Notes under the pieces: model-generated | Seen by the model: the letters and a program-made list of their open reading frames with translations, nothing else | Databases searched by the model: none | What the model was told of the DNA's origin: nothing | Shown: positions 3,710-40,956 of the stretch, one piece after another | How positions within the stretch are numbered: the stretch's first letter is position 1 | How the letters are laid out: each line of letters begins with the position of its first letter | NCBI GenBank assembly: GCA_019637295.1 | Contig: JAHBVX010000006.1 | Span: 248,001 to 312,000 of the forward strand | Source of the DNA: Polyangiaceae bacterium | Lineage (GTDB): Bacteria; Myxococcota_A; Polyangia; Polyangiales; Polyangiaceae | Direction: 5' to 3' | Length of the DNA stretch: 64,000 nt | Position numbers and translations under genes: made by a program

Positions 3710-3713
<4 letters not shown>

Positions 3714-4570
3714 GGCTGCGGCTCCTGGTGCTCGACGCCTACGACGACGCGGGGCGGCGCGCGCTGTCGAGCGTTGGCGCTACCCATGCGGGTGTGCTCT
3801 ACGCGCGCCTGCTCGAGCGCCTCTGTCCGGGCGCGACCGTCGACGTGGCCTCGTTTCGCGAGCCCGGGTTCGCGTTGCCCAGCGGCAGCACCGTCGCCGA
3901 CTACGACGGCGTGGTGTGGACCGGCTCGAACCTGACGATCCATCAGGATACGCCAGCGGTGCGCGATCAACTGGCCTTCGCGCGACAGTCGCTCGCCGCT
4001 GGCCTCTCGAGCTTCGGCAGCTGTTGGGCGGCGCAGGTCGCCGTCACCGCCACCGGCGGGCGCTGCGCGGCGAATCCCAAAGGTCGCGAGTTCGGCATCG
4101 GGCGACAGATCGTGCTCACGGCCGCCGGACGCGCGCACCCCATGTTCGAGGGCAAGGCATCGGTCTTCGACGCCCCCACCAGCCACGAGGACCACGTCGT
4201 GGAGCTCGGACCACACGCCACGCTGCTGGCCAGCAACGAGTTCTCTGTCGTGCAGGCCGTCAGTGTGGAGCACGGCCCGGGCAGCTTCTGGGCGGTGCAG
4301 TACCACCCGGAGTTCAGCCTGTTCGATGTCGCGCGACTTGGCGTGCTGCGCGCGCCGCAGCTCGTGGCGCAGGGCTTCCTGCGCAGTCGCGAAGAGGCGG
4401 AAGCCTATGCGGCCGAGCTCGAGGCGCTCGAGCGAGACCCTGCGCGCAAAGACATCGCCTTTCGCTTGGGGATCGGGCCGGACGTGCTCGACGTGGAGCG
4501 TCGTACGCGGGAGGTAGCGAACTGGATTCGGCGGAGGGTCGCCTCGGGGTCGCCGAGTCACGAGCGGTGA
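3710..4570 (+). CDS. Class I glutamine amidotransferase (GMP synthase-like)
   Basis: GTG 3710 overlaps the dioxygenase stop (GTGA). The 286-residue protein has the class I triad: nucleophile Cys105 in GSCWAAQ, and His199/Glu201 in YHPEFS. It matches stand-alone GATase1 proteins annotated as 'GMP synthase glutamine amidotransferase domain', but there is no synthetase domain, so it is not GuaA. About 60 extra C-terminal residues are charged and probably helical. Likely cytosolic, either hydrolysing a gamma-glutamyl bond or supplying ammonia to a partner. Coupling to the dioxygenase suggests both act on one small nitrogenous metabolite, which is inference. Confidence 0.8.
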
Positions 4571-27159: not shown

Positions 27160-28311
27160 TCACAGCCGAGCCTGGAGGGCTCGGGCTACGGCTCGTGCAG
27201 GCTGCACGACGCCCCAGCCCTGGCGATCCACCTCCACGCCGGGGATGCGCAGCGCGGTGTCGATCAGGATCTTCTTCACCTGCGGGGGCGTGAGGGCGGG
27301 GTTGGCCTCGAGCATTTGCGCCACGACTGCGCTGACGATCGGCGCGGCGAAGGAGGTGCCGTCGACGTGCTTGTAGTGACCGGACACGATCTTCTGATCC
27401 CGATACTTCAGCTCCACCAGACTGCGAATCAGGTACGCCTCGCCACCGGCGATCGCGTCCAGCTCCGGATCGATGCCGGCACCGTCGCGCAACAGCTCGC
27501 GCACGGCGTCGTCGCCGTCGGCGTTGGCGAGCGCGTGAAGCAGCTCGACGTGGCGAGCCGTCGGCGTCTCGGGCAGGACCGGCGCGGCCACCCAGATGGC
27601 CTGGGCGATGAGCTCGGGCTTCTGCAGCCCGTCGACCGTGGGTCCGTGGGAGGAGTGGTACATGCTGTGGGAGTTCTGGTTCGACGTGTCGTCGAACCCC
27701 CCCACGCTGATCACGCTGGGCGCGCTGGCGGGCGGCAGCACTCGGCTCCCATGGCGTCCCGAGTTCCCGACGGCCGCCACCACCACGATGCCCGCACGTA
27801 CGGCGTCCTCCGCGGCGCGGCTGAGCGAGTCGGTCAGGTAGCTCTCTTCGTAGTCTCCACCACAGGAGATGTTGAGCACGCGGATGCCGTACTGCTCGCG
27901 GTGAGCGATGGCCCAGCGGATGCCGTCGCGGATTGCGTGGTGCTGGATGCGCTGGATCGAGCCGACCTTCACCAGCACCACGAGCGCGTCCGGTGCGAGG
28001 CCCCGGTACTTCCCGCCCGACAGATGTCCGTTACCGGCGCAGACCACGCTCGTCATCATGCCGTGCCACGAGGAAGCGTTCGGTGGCGGCGTGCCGCGCA
28101 GCGTCGTCTCGTCCGTCAGCACGTCGTGGTGCGCGAGGATGCGACTCTCGGGCTCGACCAGATCCGCGTGGGCGAAGAAGCCCGAGTCGAGGAAGCCGAT
28201 GGTGACGCCGCGCCCCGTGACGCGCTCGTCGATCTCGAGTCGAGCCGGGATCGGACGAATGCTGGGCGGCTTCGCCGAGGGTGGAGGAACGGAGTGCAGC
28301 GCGTGGGGCAT
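27160..28311 (-). CDS. S8-family subtilisin-like serine protease
   Basis: 383 residues from ATG 28311. The catalytic triad is intact: Asp42 in GFLDSGF, His83 in SSWHGMMTS, and Ser320 in HVDGTSFAAPI, with oxyanion Asn183 in AAVGNSG. An insertion of about 80 residues (~235-315) precedes the Ser motif, longer than in simple subtilisins. There is no signal peptide and no long propeptide, so it may be cytosolic or exported by an unusual route. Preceded by about 180 bases without a gene and followed at 80 bases by a lectin-like lipoprotein on the same strand. Confidence 0.85.
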   Translation of the reverse strand: MPHALHSVPPPSAKPPSIRPIPARLEIDERVTGRGVTIGFLDSGFFAHADLVEPESRILAHHDVLTDETTLRGTPPPNASSWHGMMTSVVCAGNGHLSGGKYRGLAPDALVVLVKVGSIQRIQHHAIRDGIRWAIAHREQYGIRVLNISCGGDYEESYLTDSLSRAAEDAVRAGIVVVAAVGNSGRHGSRVLPPASAPSVISVGGFDDTSNQNSHSMYHSSHGPTVDGLQKPELIAQAIWVAAPVLPETPTARHVELLHALANADGDDAVRELLRDGAGIDPELDAIAGGEAYLIRSLVELKYRDQKIVSGHYKHVDGTSFAAPIVSAVVAQMLEANPALTPPQVKKILIDTALRIPGVEVDRQGWGVVQPARAVARALQARL

Positions 28312-32882: not shown

Positions 32883-33410
32883 ATGACCCGCTCGACTCGA
32901 TGGCAGACCGTCGAGGTGTTGCTGTTTGCGACTGTCGTGAGCCTGTCGCAGCTCGTCCTGTCTGCGGGGCTGACCTGGCTCGAGCGCACCATCGACGCGG
33001 CGAGCAGCGCGACGCCCGTGACGCCGCTGGGCGTGACCTCGCGCGCTCCGCCGGTCGCACCGAGGCCCAGCCTGGTGGCGCCGAGAGGCAGCCAGGAGCC
33101 GCGCCCGGGCGCGCCTCGCCGCGTCACGCTCGAGCTCGAACCAGCCGCCGAAGCGCAGCCCCGATACCGGCGGGAGGCTCCACGCGTCGCACTCGATGAC
33201 AGCGGCCGAGCCGTGCTGTCACGAGTCGACGGTACGCTCGCCGCGCTCGGCCTTCGCAGCGGAGACCGCCTGTTGGACATCAACGGGATCCCGCTCGTGG
33301 GCCCGAACGACGCGCTGCGCGCCTACTCCGAGGTTCGTCGAGCTCCGCGACTGAGCCTGGGCATCGAGCGCGGGGGCGCCCGAGTGGAGCTGCTCTACCA
33401 CTTCCACTGA
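32883..33410 (+). CDS. Membrane-anchored PDZ-domain protein (GspC-like)
   Basis: ATG 32883 follows a GGGAGG ribosome-binding site. 175 residues: an N-terminal membrane anchor (VEVLLFATVVSLSQLVLSAGL), a Pro/Ala/Arg-rich linker, and a C-terminal PDZ domain (~105-170) with LGLRSGDRLLDINGIPLVGPNDAL. The order resembles the C-terminal half of type II secretion GspC, but no other secretion gene is near. The 3' end overlaps the convergent metalloprotease gene by 16 bases. Confidence 0.7.
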   Translation: MTRSTRWQTVEVLLFATVVSLSQLVLSAGLTWLERTIDAASSATPVTPLGVTSRAPPVAPRPSLVAPRGSQEPRPGAPRRVTLELEPAAEAQPRYRREAPRVALDDSGRAVLSRVDGTLAALGLRSGDRLLDINGIPLVGPNDALRAYSEVRRAPRLSLGIERGGARVELLYHFH

Positions 33411-35683
33411 GCAGAGCGCGCTCGGCGTCGCCGCCGCTTGCCAAGCAAGAGCGCGACGCCGGCGAGGAGCGTCCACAGCAGCGAGGTGCCCGGCGCGTCG
33501 CCCCCCGCGGTGCGGCATCCGCAACCGTCGTCCTTTGGCTTCGTGGCGGACGGTGGCACCCCGGCGTCGGCGCCCCCGTCCGAGCCGGCGTCCGGATCCA
33601 CGGCTTCGCCGCTCTGATCGAACTTCACCGCGCGATACCTGCCCGCGCTCTGACCCGAGTTCACGATCATCACGAACGCGCGGGTCGCGCCCAAGGGGAC
33701 GTCGACGGTGGCGCTGCCTTGGTTGTTGGTCACCTCCGCGGGTACGGTCACGTCCGCCTTGGCCTCGAAGGGCTGATAGCCAAACTGGATCGGCTCTTCG
33801 CCGAAGCGCACCAGGACCTCGGGCTTGAAGGGCGTGCCGCCGCCGAAGATCGAGGAGGTGTCGCCCCCGGGGATGACTTGGAAGCCCACCGTGAGCTGCT
33901 CCGCAGAGCCAGTGAGGGGCACCTCGAACTGCAGCACGCCGGGCGCGTAGGGCGCGGGTCCGGCGTTCATGGACTGGGTCCCGGGCGCCTGAAACGTGCC
34001 GGCGAGCAGCGGATCGACGCTGCTGAGCGGCGTGCCGCTAAACTCCAGAATCCGCCGGCAGGTAGGCAGGACGCCGCGCGCAGTCAGCTCCGTCTCGAGC
34101 GCGTCCGCGACCGTCTGGCTGAGCGCGCTCTTCACGGACGCCACGAACAGCTCGCTCAAGCCTTCGTAGGACAGATCGCCGCCGGGGGCGGCGGCCATCA
34201 CGTCGAACAGCGCCTTGTCGAAGGCGGGCCGATCCGTCTCGGGCAACGCTTGTCGAGTCTTCCACAGCGCGGCGGTCCAGAACTTCGAGTCCACGTGGAC
34301 CTCGCCCGAGAGGTTCTTGGGGCAGGTCTCGTCGTTGTCGATGTCGCGGATCGCCGTCATCCCGGGCGCCAGGTCCGTGGAGGCGTACTCGCCCACCTTC
34401 GAGTCCCCGGTGATCGCGGAAGAGAAGTAGTCCGCGAGTCCTTCGTTCATCGCGCCGGGCGAGCCCACGAGACCCTGCTCGTCCGCGAAGTAGGTGCCCA
34501 CCAACTTCAGCGTGTGGTCGACCACCGCGTGCCCGAACTCGTGATACACCACGTCACCGTCGTAGGCGAAGTCGGCCTTGGGGCCCTGCCCGAACCACAT
34601 CGCGGCGCCGGGCAGACCGAAGACCGTCGAGAAGATGGGGTTGGCCGGCGCGAAGAAGGCGTTGGAGAACGGGACGAAGGGCAGGTTCGGATCGGCCATC
34701 TTCGCGAAGTCCTGGGTCTGAAACCCATCCGGCATCATCAGGTTGGCGACCGCCGGCAGCGGCTTGGTCGACAGATCCGTCATGCCCAGGGACTCGAAGA
34801 AGGAGTAGGCGCGGCTGGTGTGATGGAAGATCTGGACCTCGCTGAACTCGTCCTCGGGCGTGAGCGCCGCGGCCGGCGGATCGTAGAGGAAGTCCTCGCC
34901 GCTGGTGGGAGCAGCCACCTGCTGGAGCTCGCAGACGTGGACGGTGAGCGTCACGCCGAAGTTGATCTGCTTGGTCTGCTTCGTGTCTATGCAGTTGAGC
35001 GCCTTGACCCGCTCGCTCTCGAGCTTCGTCGCGCCGGGAGGCAGGTCGAGGGGTAGATCCACCAACGTCGGAGTGGAGACCGGGTTGGCCGGATAGACTC
35101 GCCCGGTCGCGAAGCGCACCGCGTTGTAGCGAATGAGCAGCTCGCCCGAGAGCGCGTCGAAGACGAGCACCGGCACATAGGGGACTCCCTGGAGGCGCTC
35201 GCTCGGTACCACGACCCAGGAGAGGCGCGCGCCCGACGCCAGCGGGTAGATGGCCAACGTCGCGTCGCTCTCCTTCACGGGCAAGCGCGCCGCGCTCTCA
35301 CTCAGGGCGCGGACCGCGCGGCGGGACACACGGGGCGTCACCCCGGGCAGCTCCGGCTCGGTGCGATCGATGGTGAGGACCGGCCGACCTTGCGCATCGA
35401 GCAAGGCTCCCGCGCCTCGGAACACCACCGGCACGCCCTCGTGTAGCTGCTGGAAGCGCACCGCCCGACGCCCACCCACGTCCCGCGACGTCCCCGAGTG
35501 CGTGAGGGTAGCCGCCCGCGCCGGGGGCGCAGCCGCGCGGATCGCCTCGAGCGCCGCCGTCGTCCCGTCCGTGGCCGGGGACGCCGTGAACGGCCCGTGC
35601 GACACGAGCGCCCGTCCAGGCGGCGCGGCCCAAGCGACGCTCGCCGAGAGAAACACCCAACTCGCCCACTGCACTCGTCGCAT
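33395..35683 (-). CDS. Fungalysin-like (M36-type) metalloprotease with MYXO-CTERM-like tail
   Basis: ATG 35683. Signal peptide (WVFLSASVAWA), an N-terminal propeptide-like region (~30-210, FTP-like RAVRFQQLHEGVPVVFRGAGA), then a gluzincin domain: zinc ligands His381 and His385 in YHEFGHAVVDH and Glu414 in MNEGLADYFSS. After ~560 there is a beta domain. The C-terminus has DGCGC, a helix (LLWTLLAGVALLLG) and a RRRRR cluster, a MYXO-CTERM-like surface-sorting signal. Secreted proteases of this type digest prey or matrix protein. Divergent from the ATP-grasp operon. Confidence 0.82.
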   Translation of the reverse strand: MRRVQWASWVFLSASVAWAAPPGRALVSHGPFTASPATDGTTAALEAIRAAAPPARAATLTHSGTSRDVGGRRAVRFQQLHEGVPVVFRGAGALLDAQGRPVLTIDRTEPELPGVTPRVSRRAVRALSESAARLPVKESDATLAIYPLASGARLSWVVVPSERLQGVPYVPVLVFDALSGELLIRYNAVRFATGRVYPANPVSTPTLVDLPLDLPPGATKLESERVKALNCIDTKQTKQINFGVTLTVHVCELQQVAAPTSGEDFLYDPPAAALTPEDEFSEVQIFHHTSRAYSFFESLGMTDLSTKPLPAVANLMMPDGFQTQDFAKMADPNLPFVPFSNAFFAPANPIFSTVFGLPGAAMWFGQGPKADFAYDGDVVYHEFGHAVVDHTLKLVGTYFADEQGLVGSPGAMNEGLADYFSSAITGDSKVGEYASTDLAPGMTAIRDIDNDETCPKNLSGEVHVDSKFWTAALWKTRQALPETDRPAFDKALFDVMAAAPGGDLSYEGLSELFVASVKSALSQTVADALETELTARGVLPTCRRILEFSGTPLSSVDPLLAGTFQAPGTQSMNAGPAPYAPGVLQFEVPLTGSAEQLTVGFQVIPGGDTSSIFGGGTPFKPEVLVRFGEEPIQFGYQPFEAKADVTVPAEVTNNQGSATVDVPLGATRAFVMIVNSGQSAGRYRAVKFDQSGEAVDPDAGSDGGADAGVPPSATKPKDDGCGCRTAGGDAPGTSLLWTLLAGVALLLGKRRRRRARSAQWKW

Positions 35684-35790
35684 GCGGTCACCTCGGGCGG
35701 CCTGGCCGCCGTTCAATCGCCGGCGGGGAGCTTAGGTGGACGGCCGGCATCGGGCAATGCGTCCGCGCCCCGCCGCCGCGTGTAGTCCGA

Positions 35791-35859: not shown

Positions 35860-36777
35860 ATGCCCGCGTCCGCCCCCCTCCGCATCGTGTTCATCGACAT
35901 GAACGCCGGCGTTCAGAACCAGGCGATGCGCTGCCTGGCGTCCGTGGTCTCACACTTCGAAGCGGCCGCCCGCCGAGACAATCCGGGGCTTCGCATCGAA
36001 GAGCGTCGCGTCTCCCCGCGCGACACGGGCGAGGCACCGCCGCGCGACGGCGATCTGTACATCGCGACCGGGGGGCCCGGCTCACCCTGGGAGGGACCGG
36101 GCACGCGTTGGTACGACGACTTTCGTCGCTTCGTGGACGTGGTCCTCGACGAGCAAGAGCGCGGGCTGGCCGTCGCGAAGTCACTGTTCCCCATCTGCTA
36201 TTCCTACGAGCTCCTGACCATGCACCTCGAGCTCGCGCGCGTCGAGGAGCGGGACGATCGCAAGTTCGGCGTGATGCCGGTGTACACCACGACCGCGGGG
36301 CGGGTGCATCCGTTGCTGGCTCCCTTCGGCGACCGCCTGTTCGCGTTCGAGCATCGCCACTGGGAGGTCGTGGACTTCGACGAGGCCAAGCTCGCGCGCT
36401 TGCACGGCCAGGTGCTCGCGACGGAGAGCCGGGAGGGCCGGAGCGACAAGGGCTCGGCGGTGCTGGGGTTCCACATCGGCCGAGCGATCGAGACCGTGCA
36501 GTTTCACCCCGAGGCGGATCTGTCGGGCATCTTCCACTGGCTGGATCAGCCCGAGCACTCACAGGCGTTCCGCGATGCCTACGGCGAGGAGACCTACCAG
36601 CGCATGTTGCGCACGCTGCACAACCCCAGGCGGGTTCAGCGCGTGCATGCCGAGCTGATCCCCGGCTGGATGCGCCGCCGGTTCAACGCCATGGCGGAAG
36701 AGCGCGGCTACAATCGAATCGAGGAAGACCCCCCCATCGAGTCGAGCGTGCTGGCCTCGCCGATCCCCCTGGCATGA
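35860..36777 (+). CDS. Class I glutamine amidotransferase-like protein of ATP-grasp cluster
   Basis: 305 residues from ATG 35860. GATase1 fold with nucleophile Cys113 in FPICYSYELL and His216/Glu218 in VQFHPEADLSG; the Gly loop reads YIATGGPGSPWEG. The triad appears complete although the elbow (PICYSY) differs from the usual GxCxG. The C-terminal ~70 residues are extra. Cytosolic. Its stop overlaps the esterase start. Either it supplies ammonia or it removes gamma-linked glutamate in the pathway of the downstream ligases. Unrelated in detail to the amidotransferase at 3710. Confidence 0.78.
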   Translation: MPASAPLRIVFIDMNAGVQNQAMRCLASVVSHFEAAARRDNPGLRIEERRVSPRDTGEAPPRDGDLYIATGGPGSPWEGPGTRWYDDFRRFVDVVLDEQERGLAVAKSLFPICYSYELLTMHLELARVEERDDRKFGVMPVYTTTAGRVHPLLAPFGDRLFAFEHRHWEVVDFDEAKLARLHGQVLATESREGRSDKGSAVLGFHIGRAIETVQFHPEADLSGIFHWLDQPEHSQAFRDAYGEETYQRMLRTLHNPRRVQRVHAELIPGWMRRRFNAMAEERGYNRIEEDPPIESSVLASPIPLA

Positions 36778-37484
36778 ACCGCGAGCATCACGCCTGGTAC
36801 AGTCCCTCCCTCGGGCGGCACATGGATCTGGTCGTCTTCGGACACGCGGGCGAGCCCGTGATCGTGTTCCCGTCATCCTGCGGGCGCTTCTTCGAGTGGG
36901 AGAACTTCGGGGTGATCGAGAGCGTCCGCCACAAGCTCGACGAGGGCCGACTGCAGCTCGTGTGTCTGGACTCGGTGGACGCGGAGAGTTGGTACAACAC
37001 GGGGGTCCACCCCGCGGTGCGGATCGCGCGGGACGACCAGTACGACCGTTACCTGGTGCACGAGGTGGTCCCGTTCATCGCGGGCAAGAATCACCGGCCC
37101 ATCACCCTGGCGGGCGCCAGCTTCGGCGGTTATCACGCCGTGGACAAAGGCCTGCGCCACCCGGACGTGTTCCGCAAGATCTTGAGCCTCAGCGGGGCCT
37201 ACGACATGCGGAGCTTCCTCGACGGACACGAAGACCTCGGGACGTTCCTGCACCAGCCGTTCCAGTACCTCCCGGACCTGGCGGATCCGTGGTTCCTCGA
37301 CCGCATGCGGCAGCAGACCGTGGTGCTCGCGGTAGGCGATCAGGACTTCTTGCTCGGCCAGAACCAGGGGCTCTGCGCCCTGCTTCGACACAAGGGCGTG
37401 GATTGTCACTTGGACGTGTGGGGCGGATACGTGCACGATTGGCCGGCCTGGAAGGGGATGCTCGGCAAACACGCCGGGTGGTGA
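36774..37484 (+). CDS. Esterase D-type alpha/beta hydrolase
   Basis: ATG 36774 overlaps the previous stop (ATGA); a longer frame upstream is a shadow of the amidotransferase gene. 236 residues with nucleophile Ser in LAGASFGGYHAV, acid in AVGDQDFLLGQN, and His in WGGYVHDWPAW, the pattern of the putative esterase (PF00756) family. No signal peptide. In this operon it could hydrolyse an ester or thioester intermediate, or release the finished product. Confidence 0.8.
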   Translation: MNREHHAWYSPSLGRHMDLVVFGHAGEPVIVFPSSCGRFFEWENFGVIESVRHKLDEGRLQLVCLDSVDAESWYNTGVHPAVRIARDDQYDRYLVHEVVPFIAGKNHRPITLAGASFGGYHAVDKGLRHPDVFRKILSLSGAYDMRSFLDGHEDLGTFLHQPFQYLPDLADPWFLDRMRQQTVVLAVGDQDFLLGQNQGLCALLRHKGVDCHLDVWGGYVHDWPAWKGMLGKHAGW

Positions 37485-37497
37485 TGGAGTCTCAGGG

Positions 37498-38499
37498 ATG
37501 ACGGAAAAGATTGGTCTCTTGGTCGGGTGGGAGGACACGTTTCCGGCTGCGTTCATCGATCGGGTGAACCGCGAGCCCGGGGTGCGCGCCGAGCTCGCGA
37601 AGATCGGCGGGACGCCCGTCGGCTTCGACCCGCCCTATCGGGTCTTGATCGACCGCATCAGCCAGGAGATCCAGCACTATCGGCTGCACCTCAAGGCCGC
37701 GGCCCTCGCCGGTACCTACGTGATCAACGATCCCCTGTGGTGGCAGGCGGACGACAAGTTCTTCGGCTTCTCGCTGGCGGACCGCATCGGCGTCGCGACG
37801 CCGCGCACGGTGCTCTTGCCGCAGCGGGACTACCTGCCGTCGATCGACCGCGAGCGCTCGCTGCGGAACCTGGAGTACCCGCTCGACTGGGAGGCCATCA
37901 CTCGCTACGTGGGCTTCCCCGCCATCCTCAAGCCCGCCGAAGGCGGCGGTTGGAAGAACGTCTCGCGCGTCAACGACATGAACGAGCTGCTCCGCGACTA
38001 CGACGCGAGCGGCTCCCTCGTGATGACGCTGCAAGAGTTCATCGACTTCGAGGACTACGTGCGCTGCATTTGCATCGGACGCGAGTTCATCCTGCCCATT
38101 CGCTACGACCCCCGGCGGCGCTGCTACCTCGTCGAGCACGAGTTCATGTCCCCGGCCCTCGGCCAGCGCGTCGTGGACGACGCCTGGAAGCTCTGCAATG
38201 CCCTCGGCTACGACATGAACTCGGTGGAGTTCGCCATCCGGGACGGCGTTCCGTACGCGATCGACTTCACGAACCCCGCGCCTGACATGGACTACCACAG
38301 CATCACCCCGCACTACTTCGAGATCGTGGTCGAAGAGATGGCGCGCTTCGCCATCAGCTGCGTGAAGGAAGAGAAGCGCCCGAACCGACGCTACAACTTC
38401 GGCGATTTCTTGCCGGGCGGCTCCCGCGCCGACGAGCTCGGGCCCGTCGCTCGCGCCGCCGCCAGCGCCAAGCCGAAGAAGCGGAGTAGCAAGGCGTGA
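37498..38499 (+). CDS. ATP-grasp ligase (RimK-like)
   Basis: 333 residues, ATG 37498 after a 13-base gap. ATP-grasp features: FPAILKPAEGGGWKNVSRV (ATP-binding Lys and Gly loop), LVMTLQEFIDFEDYVRCICIG (purine-binding strand), and the metal-binding end NSVEFAIRDGVPYAIDFTNPAPD, where Glu/Asp/Asn coordinate magnesium. The N-terminal LVGWEDTFPAAFIDRVN is the pre-grasp domain. Such enzymes join a carboxylate to an amine through an acyl phosphate. The last ~30 residues are Lys/Ala-rich. Coupled to a second ATP-grasp-like gene. Confidence 0.8.
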   Translation: MTEKIGLLVGWEDTFPAAFIDRVNREPGVRAELAKIGGTPVGFDPPYRVLIDRISQEIQHYRLHLKAAALAGTYVINDPLWWQADDKFFGFSLADRIGVATPRTVLLPQRDYLPSIDRERSLRNLEYPLDWEAITRYVGFPAILKPAEGGGWKNVSRVNDMNELLRDYDASGSLVMTLQEFIDFEDYVRCICIGREFILPIRYDPRRRCYLVEHEFMSPALGQRVVDDAWKLCNALGYDMNSVEFAIRDGVPYAIDFTNPAPDMDYHSITPHYFEIVVEEMARFAISCVKEEKRPNRRYNFGDFLPGGSRADELGPVARAAASAKPKKRSSKA

Positions 38500-39872
38500 C
38501 CGCGTCGGACAGGCCCCCGGCGGAGCTCGCCATCGACGAAGCCTGCGCCGACTACGACCGAGTGCTCGAGCGAGTCGAGTCCGAGACCCCGGGCTTCTGC
38601 CAGGCGCTGCTCGATCGCCTGGTCGCGGAGCGCGCGAGCTACGCGGCGCGGCCCATCTGCCCGTTCCTGCGTCCGAACTTCGTGACCCAAAGCCAAACGG
38701 AGTACGTCGAGCGCGTGCTCGGCCTGTTCCGCAGCGCGGTGGTCAAGGCGAAGGACGCGATGCTCGCGGACCCTGCGCTGTTCGCGCTGGCGGGTCTCAC
38801 GGACGGCGAGCGCCGCTTGTTCGACATCGACCCCGGGTTTCGGCACATCGGCATCACGACGCGCATCGACACCTTCTTGATCGGCACTCAGATGCGCTTC
38901 GTAGAGCTCAACGCCGAGTGCCCGGCGGGCATGCACTACGGCGAGACGCTGGCGCGGGTGTTCCTGGACACCCCGGTGATGGCGGACTTCCAGACCCGCT
39001 TCCGCTTGAGCCGTCCCAACCCGGCGGATCTGCTGCTCCAGAGCCTGCTGGCGACTTGGGCCGAGTGGGGCGGCCAGGGCAGCCCGCGGGTGGCGGTCGT
39101 GGACTGGAAGGAGGTGAGCACGCGCACGGAGTTCGACCTGGTGTGCGAGCACTTCCAGAGCGCCGGCCTCGAGGCCGAGTTCGCGGATCCACGCGACCTG
39201 GAGTTCTCCGGCGGGCGACTGCGTTCAGGCGGCAAGCCCATCGACGTGGTCTACCGCCGCTTGCTCACCAACGAGCTCTTGGCACGAGAGAGCGAGTGCC
39301 GCGCGCTGGTCACCGCGCTCGAGCAGCGGGCCGTCTGTCTCTTCAACTCGTTCCGGGCCAAGCTCCTGCACAAGAAGACCCTGTTCGCCATTCTGCAGGA
39401 TCCGCGCATCATGACGCTGTTGTCCCCGGATGAGGCCGCGGTGATCCGCGATTGCGTACCCTGGACGCGGCTGGTGCGCGAGGGCAAGACGGACGGCCCC
39501 ACGGGCGAGACGATCGATCTGATCGAGTGGGCGCGAGACCACCGCGAAGACCTGGTGCTCAAGCCCAACGACGAGTACGGCGGGCGCGGCGTCGTCGTGG
39601 GACACAACGTCGAGCAAGACGTGTGGGAGCGCGCCCTCGCGGTGGGCCTGGCGGACCTATCCATCGTGCAACAGCGGGTCGCGGTGCCCACCCGAGACTT
39701 CCCGGTGCTCGACGATGGACGACTGGCCTGGTCACGTCGCTACGTGGACTTCGATCCGTACCTGTTCCGCGGCCGCGTGGGCGGGTATCTCACGCGCTTG
39801 AGCGCTTCGTCGCTGTGCAACGTCACCGCGGGGGGCGGCACCACGCCGACCTTCGTCCTCGACGGCTGCTGA
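38496..39872 (+). CDS. Circularly permuted ATP-grasp protein
   Basis: GTG 38496 overlaps the previous stop (GTGA). The 458-residue protein has MRFVELNAECPAGMHYGETLARVF and, near the C-terminus, DLVLKPNDEYGGRGVVVGHNV followed by IVQQRVAVP and FDPYLFRGRVGGYLTRLS. The order of these blocks is that of circularly permuted ATP-grasp families (glutathionylspermidine-synthase-like), known or predicted peptide-bond ligases. The substrate is unknown. Two different ATP-grasp enzymes plus an amidotransferase suggest stepwise amide-bond chemistry. Confidence 0.72.
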   Translation: MTASDRPPAELAIDEACADYDRVLERVESETPGFCQALLDRLVAERASYAARPICPFLRPNFVTQSQTEYVERVLGLFRSAVVKAKDAMLADPALFALAGLTDGERRLFDIDPGFRHIGITTRIDTFLIGTQMRFVELNAECPAGMHYGETLARVFLDTPVMADFQTRFRLSRPNPADLLLQSLLATWAEWGGQGSPRVAVVDWKEVSTRTEFDLVCEHFQSAGLEAEFADPRDLEFSGGRLRSGGKPIDVVYRRLLTNELLARESECRALVTALEQRAVCLFNSFRAKLLHKKTLFAILQDPRIMTLLSPDEAAVIRDCVPWTRLVREGKTDGPTGETIDLIEWARDHREDLVLKPNDEYGGRGVVVGHNVEQDVWERALAVGLADLSIVQQRVAVPTRDFPVLDDGRLAWSRRYVDFDPYLFRGRVGGYLTRLSASSLCNVTAGGGTTPTFVLDGC

Positions 39873-39927: not shown

Positions 39928-40956
39928 ATGCGTCGTCTTGGGCTCTTCGTCGCCGCAGTGCTGTGCGCTGCCTGTTCGAAAAGTGCGAGCGCGCCGGGTG
40001 CGCCGTCGGGTTCGGACTCCGGAGCCGACTCGGGCCTCGAGTGCTCGGGCGGCAGCGCCGAGGTGCGTGAGTGTGTGAGCCGACCGCGGCTCGAAGCGGA
40101 CCTACAATTCGTGGCCCAGCCGCGCTCTCCGGGCAGCCCGCACTGGCAGGCCGTCCAGGATCTTTGCAAGTCGCGCTTCGAGCAGTACGGCCTGACCGTG
40201 GAGCTTCACGCCTATTCGGGTGGCGTGAACGTGATCGGCACTCGCGCGGGGACGACCGACCCGAGCGAGCACGTTCTGGTGTCGGCGCACTACGATCACA
40301 TCCCGGGCTGCGCGGGGGCGGACGACAACGCCACCGGCGTCGCCGCGCTGCTCGAGACGGCACGCGTCACACAGGGCAGGTCCTTCCCGCGAACCTTGGC
40401 GCTGGCGTGCTGGGATCAAGAAGAGGACGGCCTGCTCGGCGCCAAAGCCTACGCCCTGCGCGCGCGCCAGAACGACGAGAGCATCGTGGTCATGTACTCC
40501 CTGGAGATGCTCGGCTTCAAGACCACCGCACCGGACACTCAAGCCGTGCCCGCGGGCATCGACATCCTCTTTCCGGAGCAGTACGCGGAGCTAGAGGCCG
40601 CCGGCTTCGTGGGTGACTTCTTGACCATCATCGCGGACACACCCGCCATGAAGGCAGGCAGCCGCGTCGCTGCGCACGCCAAGGACATCGGCCTGCGCAC
40701 CGTGTCCCTCGAGATCTCGGCGAACCTCAAGTCGAGCCCGCTGGCGGGGGATATCCGCCGCTCGGATCACGCCGCCTTCTGGGACCAAGACTTCCCCGCC
40801 ATGATGCTCACGGACACCTCCGAGTTTCGCAACCCGAACTACCACTGCAGAAACGGCCTCTCGGACACGGTCGATACGCTGGATCTGCAGTTCTTGACGG
40901 ACAACACCCGCGCGGTGGTCGGCTCGGTGGTCGACGTGCTCATGAAGACCGAGTGA
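39928..40956 (+). CDS. M28-family zinc peptidase lipoprotein
   Basis: ATG 39928, lipobox CAAC near residue 16 and a short Ser/Gly linker. The catalytic domain shows the M28 zinc ligands: VSAHYDHIPG, GADDNATG and WDQEEDGLLGA, with a later SDHAAFWDQDFPAMMLTDT. The family are aminopeptidases or glutaminyl cyclase relatives acting on short peptides. It begins 55 bases after the ATP-grasp operon on the same strand and could be a surface scavenging enzyme, independent of the operon. Confidence 0.85.
   Translation: MRRLGLFVAAVLCAACSKSASAPGAPSGSDSGADSGLECSGGSAEVRECVSRPRLEADLQFVAQPRSPGSPHWQAVQDLCKSRFEQYGLTVELHAYSGGVNVIGTRAGTTDPSEHVLVSAHYDHIPGCAGADDNATGVAALLETARVTQGRSFPRTLALACWDQEEDGLLGAKAYALRARQNDESIVVMYSLEMLGFKTTAPDTQAVPAGIDILFPEQYAELEAAGFVGDFLTIIADTPAMKAGSRVAAHAKDIGLRTVSLEISANLKSSPLAGDIRRSDHAAFWDQDFPAMMLTDTSEFRNPNYHCRNGLSDTVDTLDLQFLTDNTRAVVGSVVDVLMKTE

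What the first reader, a model, noticed from the sequence alone, without database searches (positions are those of the whole stretch)
35860..39872. Four-gene ATP-grasp / amidotransferase / esterase operon, a candidate undescribed amide-forming pathway
Seen: four same-strand genes with ATGA, 13-base and GTGA junctions encode a class I amidotransferase (Cys113, His216, Glu218), an esterase D-type hydrolase, an ATP-grasp ligase and a circularly permuted ATP-grasp protein. Known: ATP-grasp enzymes make amide bonds through acyl phosphates, and clusters pairing normal and permuted ATP-grasp with amidotransferase-like enzymes are predicted to build small peptides or modify metabolites. Inference: two successive ligations, with the amidotransferase supplying ammonia or trimming a glutamyl group and the esterase releasing product. 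No carrier protein or precursor peptide gene is in the operon.
Basis: partly seen in the sequence, partly recalled or inferred. Interest (0 to 1): 0.75.

Follow-up and report, generated by a model that had tools for sequence, protein, structure and literature searches.

The report
Myxobacterial amide-ligase operon, modular type
Four overlapping genes in a soil-type bacterium encode two amide-bond-making enzymes and two bond-cutting enzymes. Related genomes always carry the same core pair and swap the second ligase, so this is a real but uncharacterised variant of a known kind of small-peptide (or peptide-tag) pathway.

Summary
In detail: four same-strand genes (35860-39872; ATGA overlap, 13-base gap, GTGA overlap) encode a class-I-GATase-like enzyme (Cys113/His216/Glu218), an esterase-fold hydrolase, a RimK/LysX-type ATP-grasp and a circularly permuted (CP) ATP-grasp. 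Ligase and triad residues are conserved in relatives, the esterase acid residue excepted.

The exact quartet was seen only here, but its parts are tightly linked elsewhere. In 59 relatives the ATP-grasp and GATase-like genes occur in the same 16 genomes (16/16 and 0/43), though often at separate loci. A cytoplasmic-looking subtilase follows them in 13 of 16; its copy here is at 27160-28311 (-). All 16 also carry a second ligase, usually beside the ATP-grasp: GCS2 in 13, a PGM1-like ATP-grasp in two, and the CP ATP-grasp alone in the window genome.

The GATase-like protein lacks the glutamine-site Gln and the GxCxG elbow. It has Glu at Cys+4 in 13 of 14 members, as in gamma-glutamyl hydrolase. 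I therefore favour amide hydrolysis or trimming over ammonia supply.

Best reading: two successive ATP-dependent ligations plus hydrolases that trim the product. This is a new variant of the linked-peptide-ligase clusters reviewed by the Aravind group. Substrates are unknown.

The parts
35860..36777 (+). GAT: class-I GATase-like (peptidase C26-like) enzyme, 305 aa; triad Cys113-His216-Glu218; Glu117 at Cys+4, Ser115 at Cys+2
36774..37484 (+). EST: alpha/beta-hydrolase (PF00756), 236 aa; GASFG nucleophile elbow with Ser116, His221-Asp222-Trp223
37498..38499 (+). GRASP: RimK/LysX-type ATP-grasp ligase, 333 aa; Lys145, GGG149-151, Glu244, Asp256, Asn259 invariant
38496..39872 (+). CPG: circularly permuted ATP-grasp ligase, 458 aa; Arg123-x-Asp125, Glu137-x-Asn139 in the N-terminal half, Lys356 and GG362-363 in the C-terminal half
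27160..28311 (-). SUBT: subtilase (PF00082), 383 aa, no evident signal peptide (by eye); Asp42/His83/Ser320; ortholog of the subtilase that is divergently adjacent to GAT in several relatives
39928..40956 (+). M28 peptidase lipoprotein 55 bp downstream; possibly co-transcribed, not conserved at related loci, so probably not part of the module

Best explanation
A small non-ribosomal amide-ligation module. GRASP (RimK/LysX-type) and a second ligase carry out two successive ATP-dependent carboxylate-amine ligations through acyl phosphates, building a short peptide-like or gamma-glutamyl-type product or adding residues to an acceptor. The second ligase here is CPG, whose slot is held in relatives by GCS2 (glutamate-cysteine-ligase-type) or a PGM1-like ATP-grasp. 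The GATase-like protein does not feed ammonia; it cuts a gamma-glutamyl or similar side-chain amide of the intermediate or product, the way gamma-glutamyl hydrolases (C26) do. The cytoplasmic-looking subtilase and the esterase-fold hydrolase do further trimming or release. Shown: gene structure, intact ligase residues, a phyletically obligate GRASP-GAT pair, strong association with the subtilase, the exchangeable second-ligase slot. Inferred: the chemistry, the order of steps, the hydrolytic role of GAT, the role of EST. Unknown: substrates and product.
For: Active-site residues of both ligases are conserved in all homologues that cover them. The RxD/ExN set of CPG matches the four residues whose mutation abolished or strongly reduced Cp1B of the E-64 pathway, and Cp1B and Gsp-synthetase-like proteins are its PDB profile hits. 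The GRASP model (pLDDT 84.6) is closest to RimK (Z 21.5, 3.2 A, 261 aligned) and LysX/ArgX (Z about 20). GRASP and GAT occur in the same 16 of 59 relatives (Fisher 9e-15, not corrected for phylogeny) and the same 8 of 284 phylum genomes. Subtilase (at least 54% identity) is in 13 of the 16 and none outside. GCS2 is in 13 of the 16 and 1 of the other 43; the remaining three carry a PGM1-like ATP-grasp (G013, G042) or CPG (window) next to GRASP. CPG neighbours GRASP and/or GCS2 in L043, L044, L045, L059, L061, L079, L080. GAT has Glu at Cys+4 in 13/14 and Ser at Cys+2 in 14/14, against CLGFE in human gamma-glutamyl hydrolase 1l9x and CLGAQ in a glutamine amidotransferase.
Against: GAT's best named hits are all 'glutamine amidotransferase' models, below cut-off, and no PF07722 (C26) hit appeared; one residue does not settle hydrolase versus amidotransferase. 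No substrate evidence exists. EST is in the operon in only two genera seen here (window, L056), so its role may be incidental. The CPG fold model was too poor to use (pLDDT 49.8). The p-values ignore shared ancestry.
Confidence: 0.55

Rival explanations
1. True amidotransferase: GAT hydrolyses glutamine and passes ammonia to one of the ligases, making a primary amide.
For: Complete Cys-His-Glu triad and a GGPG oxyanion strand; the nearest named families are glutamine amidotransferases; obligate pairing with one ligase is what a synthetase-glutaminase pair would show.
Against: The GxCxG elbow and the Cys+4 Gln of amidotransferases are replaced by x-[IV]-C-[YHF]-S-[YF]-E. GAT lies away from GRASP in most of the 16 genomes (on another contig or over 10 kb away), and its steadiest neighbour is a peptidase, not a ligase.
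Confidence: 0.17
2. Protein-tagging system: GRASP, like RimK or LysX, adds residues to a protein's C-terminus or side chain, the second ligase extends the tag, and GAT plus subtilase remove or process it.
For: Closest folds are RimK (protein glutamylation) and LysX/ArgX (act on the carrier protein LysW); a subtilase without an evident signal peptide is nearly always present; peptide tagging has been proposed for related ATP-grasp clusters.
Against: No acceptor protein or carrier gene recurs next to GRASP in the loci clustered; the fold alone does not separate protein from metabolite acceptors.
Confidence: 0.2
3. Degenerate or transitional cluster: the window genome lost the GCS2 partner, and CPG/EST are leftovers with little function.
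For: The exact quartet is unique to this genome; CPG is a remnant with an internal deletion in L058 and absent in L052, L057 and L062; the sister species G001 has none of these genes.
Against: All four genes are open, with overlapping junctions and intact ligase residues.
Confidence: 0.08

Closest known systems
Linked ATP-grasp / COOH-NH2 ligase peptide-synthesis clusters (Iyer et al. 2009, cited in PMC4431377 and PMC5666114)
   Same: Two or more different amide ligases adjacent with hydrolases/peptidases; CP ATP-grasp with GCS2 in L045, L059, L061, L079, L080, L086
   Different: The GATase-like protein with atypical elbow, the subtilase and the exchange of GCS2, CPG and PGM1-like ligase beside one GRASP. 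The 2009 paper itself could not be read here, so prior description of this variant cannot be excluded
Cp1B, ATP-grasp of fungal E-64 biosynthesis (PDB 9cjn)
   Same: Stand-alone ligase without carrier; RxD and ExN catalytic residues match CPG; works with a second, separate amide-forming enzyme
   Different: Partner in E-64 is an adenylating (ANL) synthetase, not a second ATP-grasp; similarity only at profile level (E 1.9e-7)
Glutathionylspermidine synthetase / YgiC / YjfC
   Same: Circularly permuted ATP-grasp core, profile hits (3n6x 4.5e-14; YgiC 8.6e-5; GspSA 0.0027)
   Different: No amidase domain; genomic partners are other ligases and hydrolases
RimK, LysX/ArgX
   Same: GRASP fold match Z 21.5 and about 20; weak sequence match
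   Different: 14-20% identity, far below family cut-off; D-F-T-N in place of E-x-N at the second Mg site (RimK motif from own knowledge)
Gamma-glutamyl hydrolase (C26, PDB 1l9x)
   Same: Cys-His-Glu triad with Glu at Cys+4
   Different: No detectable overall sequence match; elbow Gly residues mostly absent; extra C-terminal region

Membership tests
Class I glutamine amidotransferase (PF00117) | Cys-His-Glu triad | tested here: met
   C113, H216, E218 invariant in 14
Class I glutamine amidotransferase (PF00117) | GxCxG nucleophile elbow and Gln at Cys+4 | tested here: not met
   Cys-2 is Gly in only 3 of 14, Cys+2 is Ser in 14/14, Cys+4 is Glu in 13/14
Class I glutamine amidotransferase (PF00117) | Score above Pfam gathering cut-off | tested here: not met
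   12.9 vs 22.8 bits
Gamma-glutamyl hydrolase / C26 | Glu at Cys+4 | tested here: met
Gamma-glutamyl hydrolase / C26 | Match to PF07722 | tested here: not met
   no match
RimK family ligase (TIGR00768) | Score above curated cut-off | tested here: not met
   38 vs 143.4 bits
RimK family ligase (TIGR00768) | ATP-grasp fold of the RimK/LysX type | tested here: met
   AF2 model, Z 21.5, 3.2 A, 261 aligned; other ATP-grasps score Z 18-19
Circularly permuted ATP-grasp | Mg-binding RxD and ExN motifs precede the ATP-binding Lys/Gly-rich part | tested here: met
   R123, D125, E137, N139 before K356, G362, G363
Circularly permuted ATP-grasp | Predicted fold | tested here: inconclusive
   model pLDDT 49.8, not searched
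Glutathionylspermidine synthetase (bifunctional) | N-terminal amidase domain | tested here: not met
   Pfam on CPG shows only CP ATP-grasp
Linked peptide-ligase cluster | At least two different amide ligases plus hydrolase/peptidase genes in one neighbourhood | tested here: met
Linked peptide-ligase cluster | Amide ligase activity | not testable with these tools
   needs biochemistry

The most novel reading that the evidence does not exclude
GRASP, the GATase-like hydrolase and the subtilase form a new reversible protein- or peptide-tagging pathway of myxobacteria in which three unrelated ligase types (GCS2, CP ATP-grasp, PGM1-like ATP-grasp) are interchangeable for the second step.
Probability: 0.2. 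Interest if true: 0.65.

Novelty: new variant of a known kind. Interest (0 to 1): 0.45.

Why it matters
The GRASP-GAT pair is co-inherited without exception in the genomes searched, although most of the pairs are not neighbours, which is strong evidence for one shared pathway not named by Pfam, NCBIfam or the papers searched. The exchangeable second ligase would be a natural experiment in how short peptides or tags are diversified without NRPS or ribosome, and CP ATP-grasps are of practical interest as amide-forming biocatalysts (PMC12568646).

Tried and rejected
Glutathionylspermidine synthesis: rejected, no amidase domain and only distant similarity. GCS2 hidden elsewhere in the window genome: the only GCS2 (C22:180947) is not of the cluster's family. 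M28 gene as a fifth member: no homologue in the related loci. Plasmid homologues of CPG: only remote ones, under 60% identity. CPG structure: model too poor, not used. PDB profile search with the GAT alignment: nothing at E 0.01. Promoter/terminator scan: no promoter-like site; one terminator-like hit, fewer than in shuffles, uninformative. Literature searches for the cluster found no description; Iyer et al. 2009 is not held.

Full report
Observation. Searches confirm four same-strand genes at 35860-36777, 36774-37484, 37498-38499 and 38496-39872, with ATGA, 13-base and GTGA junctions. I call them GAT, EST, GRASP and CPG. The window lies in a 7.65 Mb genome; named hits from other genomes are Myxococcales/Polyangiaceae MAGs, so this is a myxobacterium of the Polyangiales type (inference).

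Families. EST is PF00756. CPG hits CP_ATPgrasp_2 at 1e-5, below cut-off. GAT hits class I GATase models below cut-off. GRASP has no Pfam match and a below-cut-off RimK match. The CPG profile finds 3n6x, Cp1B, YgiC, GspSA and YjfC in the PDB. The GRASP model (pLDDT 84.6) is closest to RimK (Z 21.5) and LysX/ArgX (Z about 20), with other ATP-grasps at 18-19. The CPG model was too poor to use.

Active sites. In GRASP, K145, G149-151, E244, D256 and N259 are invariant in 24 sequences. In CPG, R123, D125, E137 and N139 are invariant in the 14 rows that cover them, and K356 and G362/363 in all 15; the first four correspond in motif to R139, D141, E163 and N165 of Cp1B, where alanine substitutions abolished or greatly reduced activity (PMC12568646). 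GAT keeps C113/H216/E218, but its elbow is x-[IV]-C-[YHF]-S-[YF]-E. Glu at Cys+4 occurs in 13 of 14 members, as in human gamma-glutamyl hydrolase 1l9x (CLGFE), where amidotransferases have Gln (CLGAQ in 9xfs). This points to hydrolysis of a gamma-glutamyl-like amide, but one position is not proof. EST keeps S116 and H221 in all seven homologues aligned; its candidate acid residue D191 is shared only with L056.

Neighbourhoods. Gene calls by a home-made finder and clustering show GRASP next to GCS2 (PF04107), CPG, a PGM1-like ATP-grasp (PF18105), GAT and EST. L056 has GAT-EST-GRASP-GCS2. L059, L061 and L045 have GRASP-CPG-GCS2; L058 has a CPG remnant between GRASP and GCS2. L079 and L080 carry CPG with GCS2. 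In MAGs named Sericytochromatia and Cyanobacteria (L043, L044) the order is CPG-GCS2-M29 peptidase-GRASP, preceded in L043 by a subtilase of another subfamily, 29% identical. A parallel cassette EST-GRASP2-CP-ATP-grasp (another family, hhalign probability 93%) occurs in L060 and, with an extra ATP-grasp, L065. So the exact quartet is unique here among genomes searched, but its parts recur as neighbours.

Subtilase. GAT is divergently adjacent to a subtilase in several relatives; the window's ortholog lies 7.5 kb upstream at 27160-28311 (-), 52-64% identical to the others. Its catalytic residues are intact and it has no evident signal peptide (by eye).

Co-occurrence. Close GRASP (E at or below 1e-110) and GAT occur in the same 16 of 59 relatives (Fisher 9e-15) and the same 8 of 284 phylum genomes (1e-15). 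Subtilase with at least 54% identity: 13 of 16 and 0 of 43 (1.4e-10). GCS2: 13 of 16 and 1 of 43 (1.8e-9). The three without GCS2 have a PGM1-like ATP-grasp (G013, G042) or CPG (window). P values are not corrected for ancestry; however, the set is patchy within one family (12 of 37 genomes) and the same-genus genome G001 lacks it.

Mechanism. The best reading is two successive acyl-phosphate ligations with hydrolytic trimming. Linked ligases are known to act successively (PMC4431377), and stand-alone ATP-grasps make peptide-like natural products. Rivals are ammonia supply, protein tagging and a decaying cluster; see the rival list.

Novelty. The class of system is known; this composition is not in the libraries or papers searched. 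The founding survey (Iyer et al. 2009) could not be read, so I rate it a new variant of a known kind.

Noticed in passing
L087 2984-13053 and L090: Larger Myxococcota cluster: glycogen synthase, ATP-grasp, S51-like protein, enterochelin-type esterase, distant GRASP (416 aa), EST, GCS2 with CBS domains, AstE/AspA peptidase. The distant GRASP type accounts for most of the 87 hit genomes of 284.
   Followed up: partly
L081 217-5740: Two CPG paralogues flank an N-formylglutamate amidohydrolase (PF05013) and a MATCAP/tyrosine-carboxypeptidase-like protein (PF08014): CPG-FGase-MATCAP-CPG.
   Followed up: no
L086 6069-9823: CPG between a class II GATase (PF13230) and a 500-aa GCS2 protein.
   Followed up: no
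L058 8539-9051: 171-aa CPG remnant (N- and C-terminal parts only, core deleted) between intact GRASP and GCS2, suggesting CPG is dispensable where GCS2 is present.
   Followed up: partly
window 33395-35716 (-): Large secreted M36-like zinc peptidase with a MYXO-CTERM-like tail, divergent from GAT where relatives carry the subtilase.
   Followed up: no
window 3710-4570 (+): Second class I GATase / C26 protein in the window (PF00117 1e-8), related to the GATase that replaces GAT beside GRASP in L038, L053-L055.
   Followed up: no
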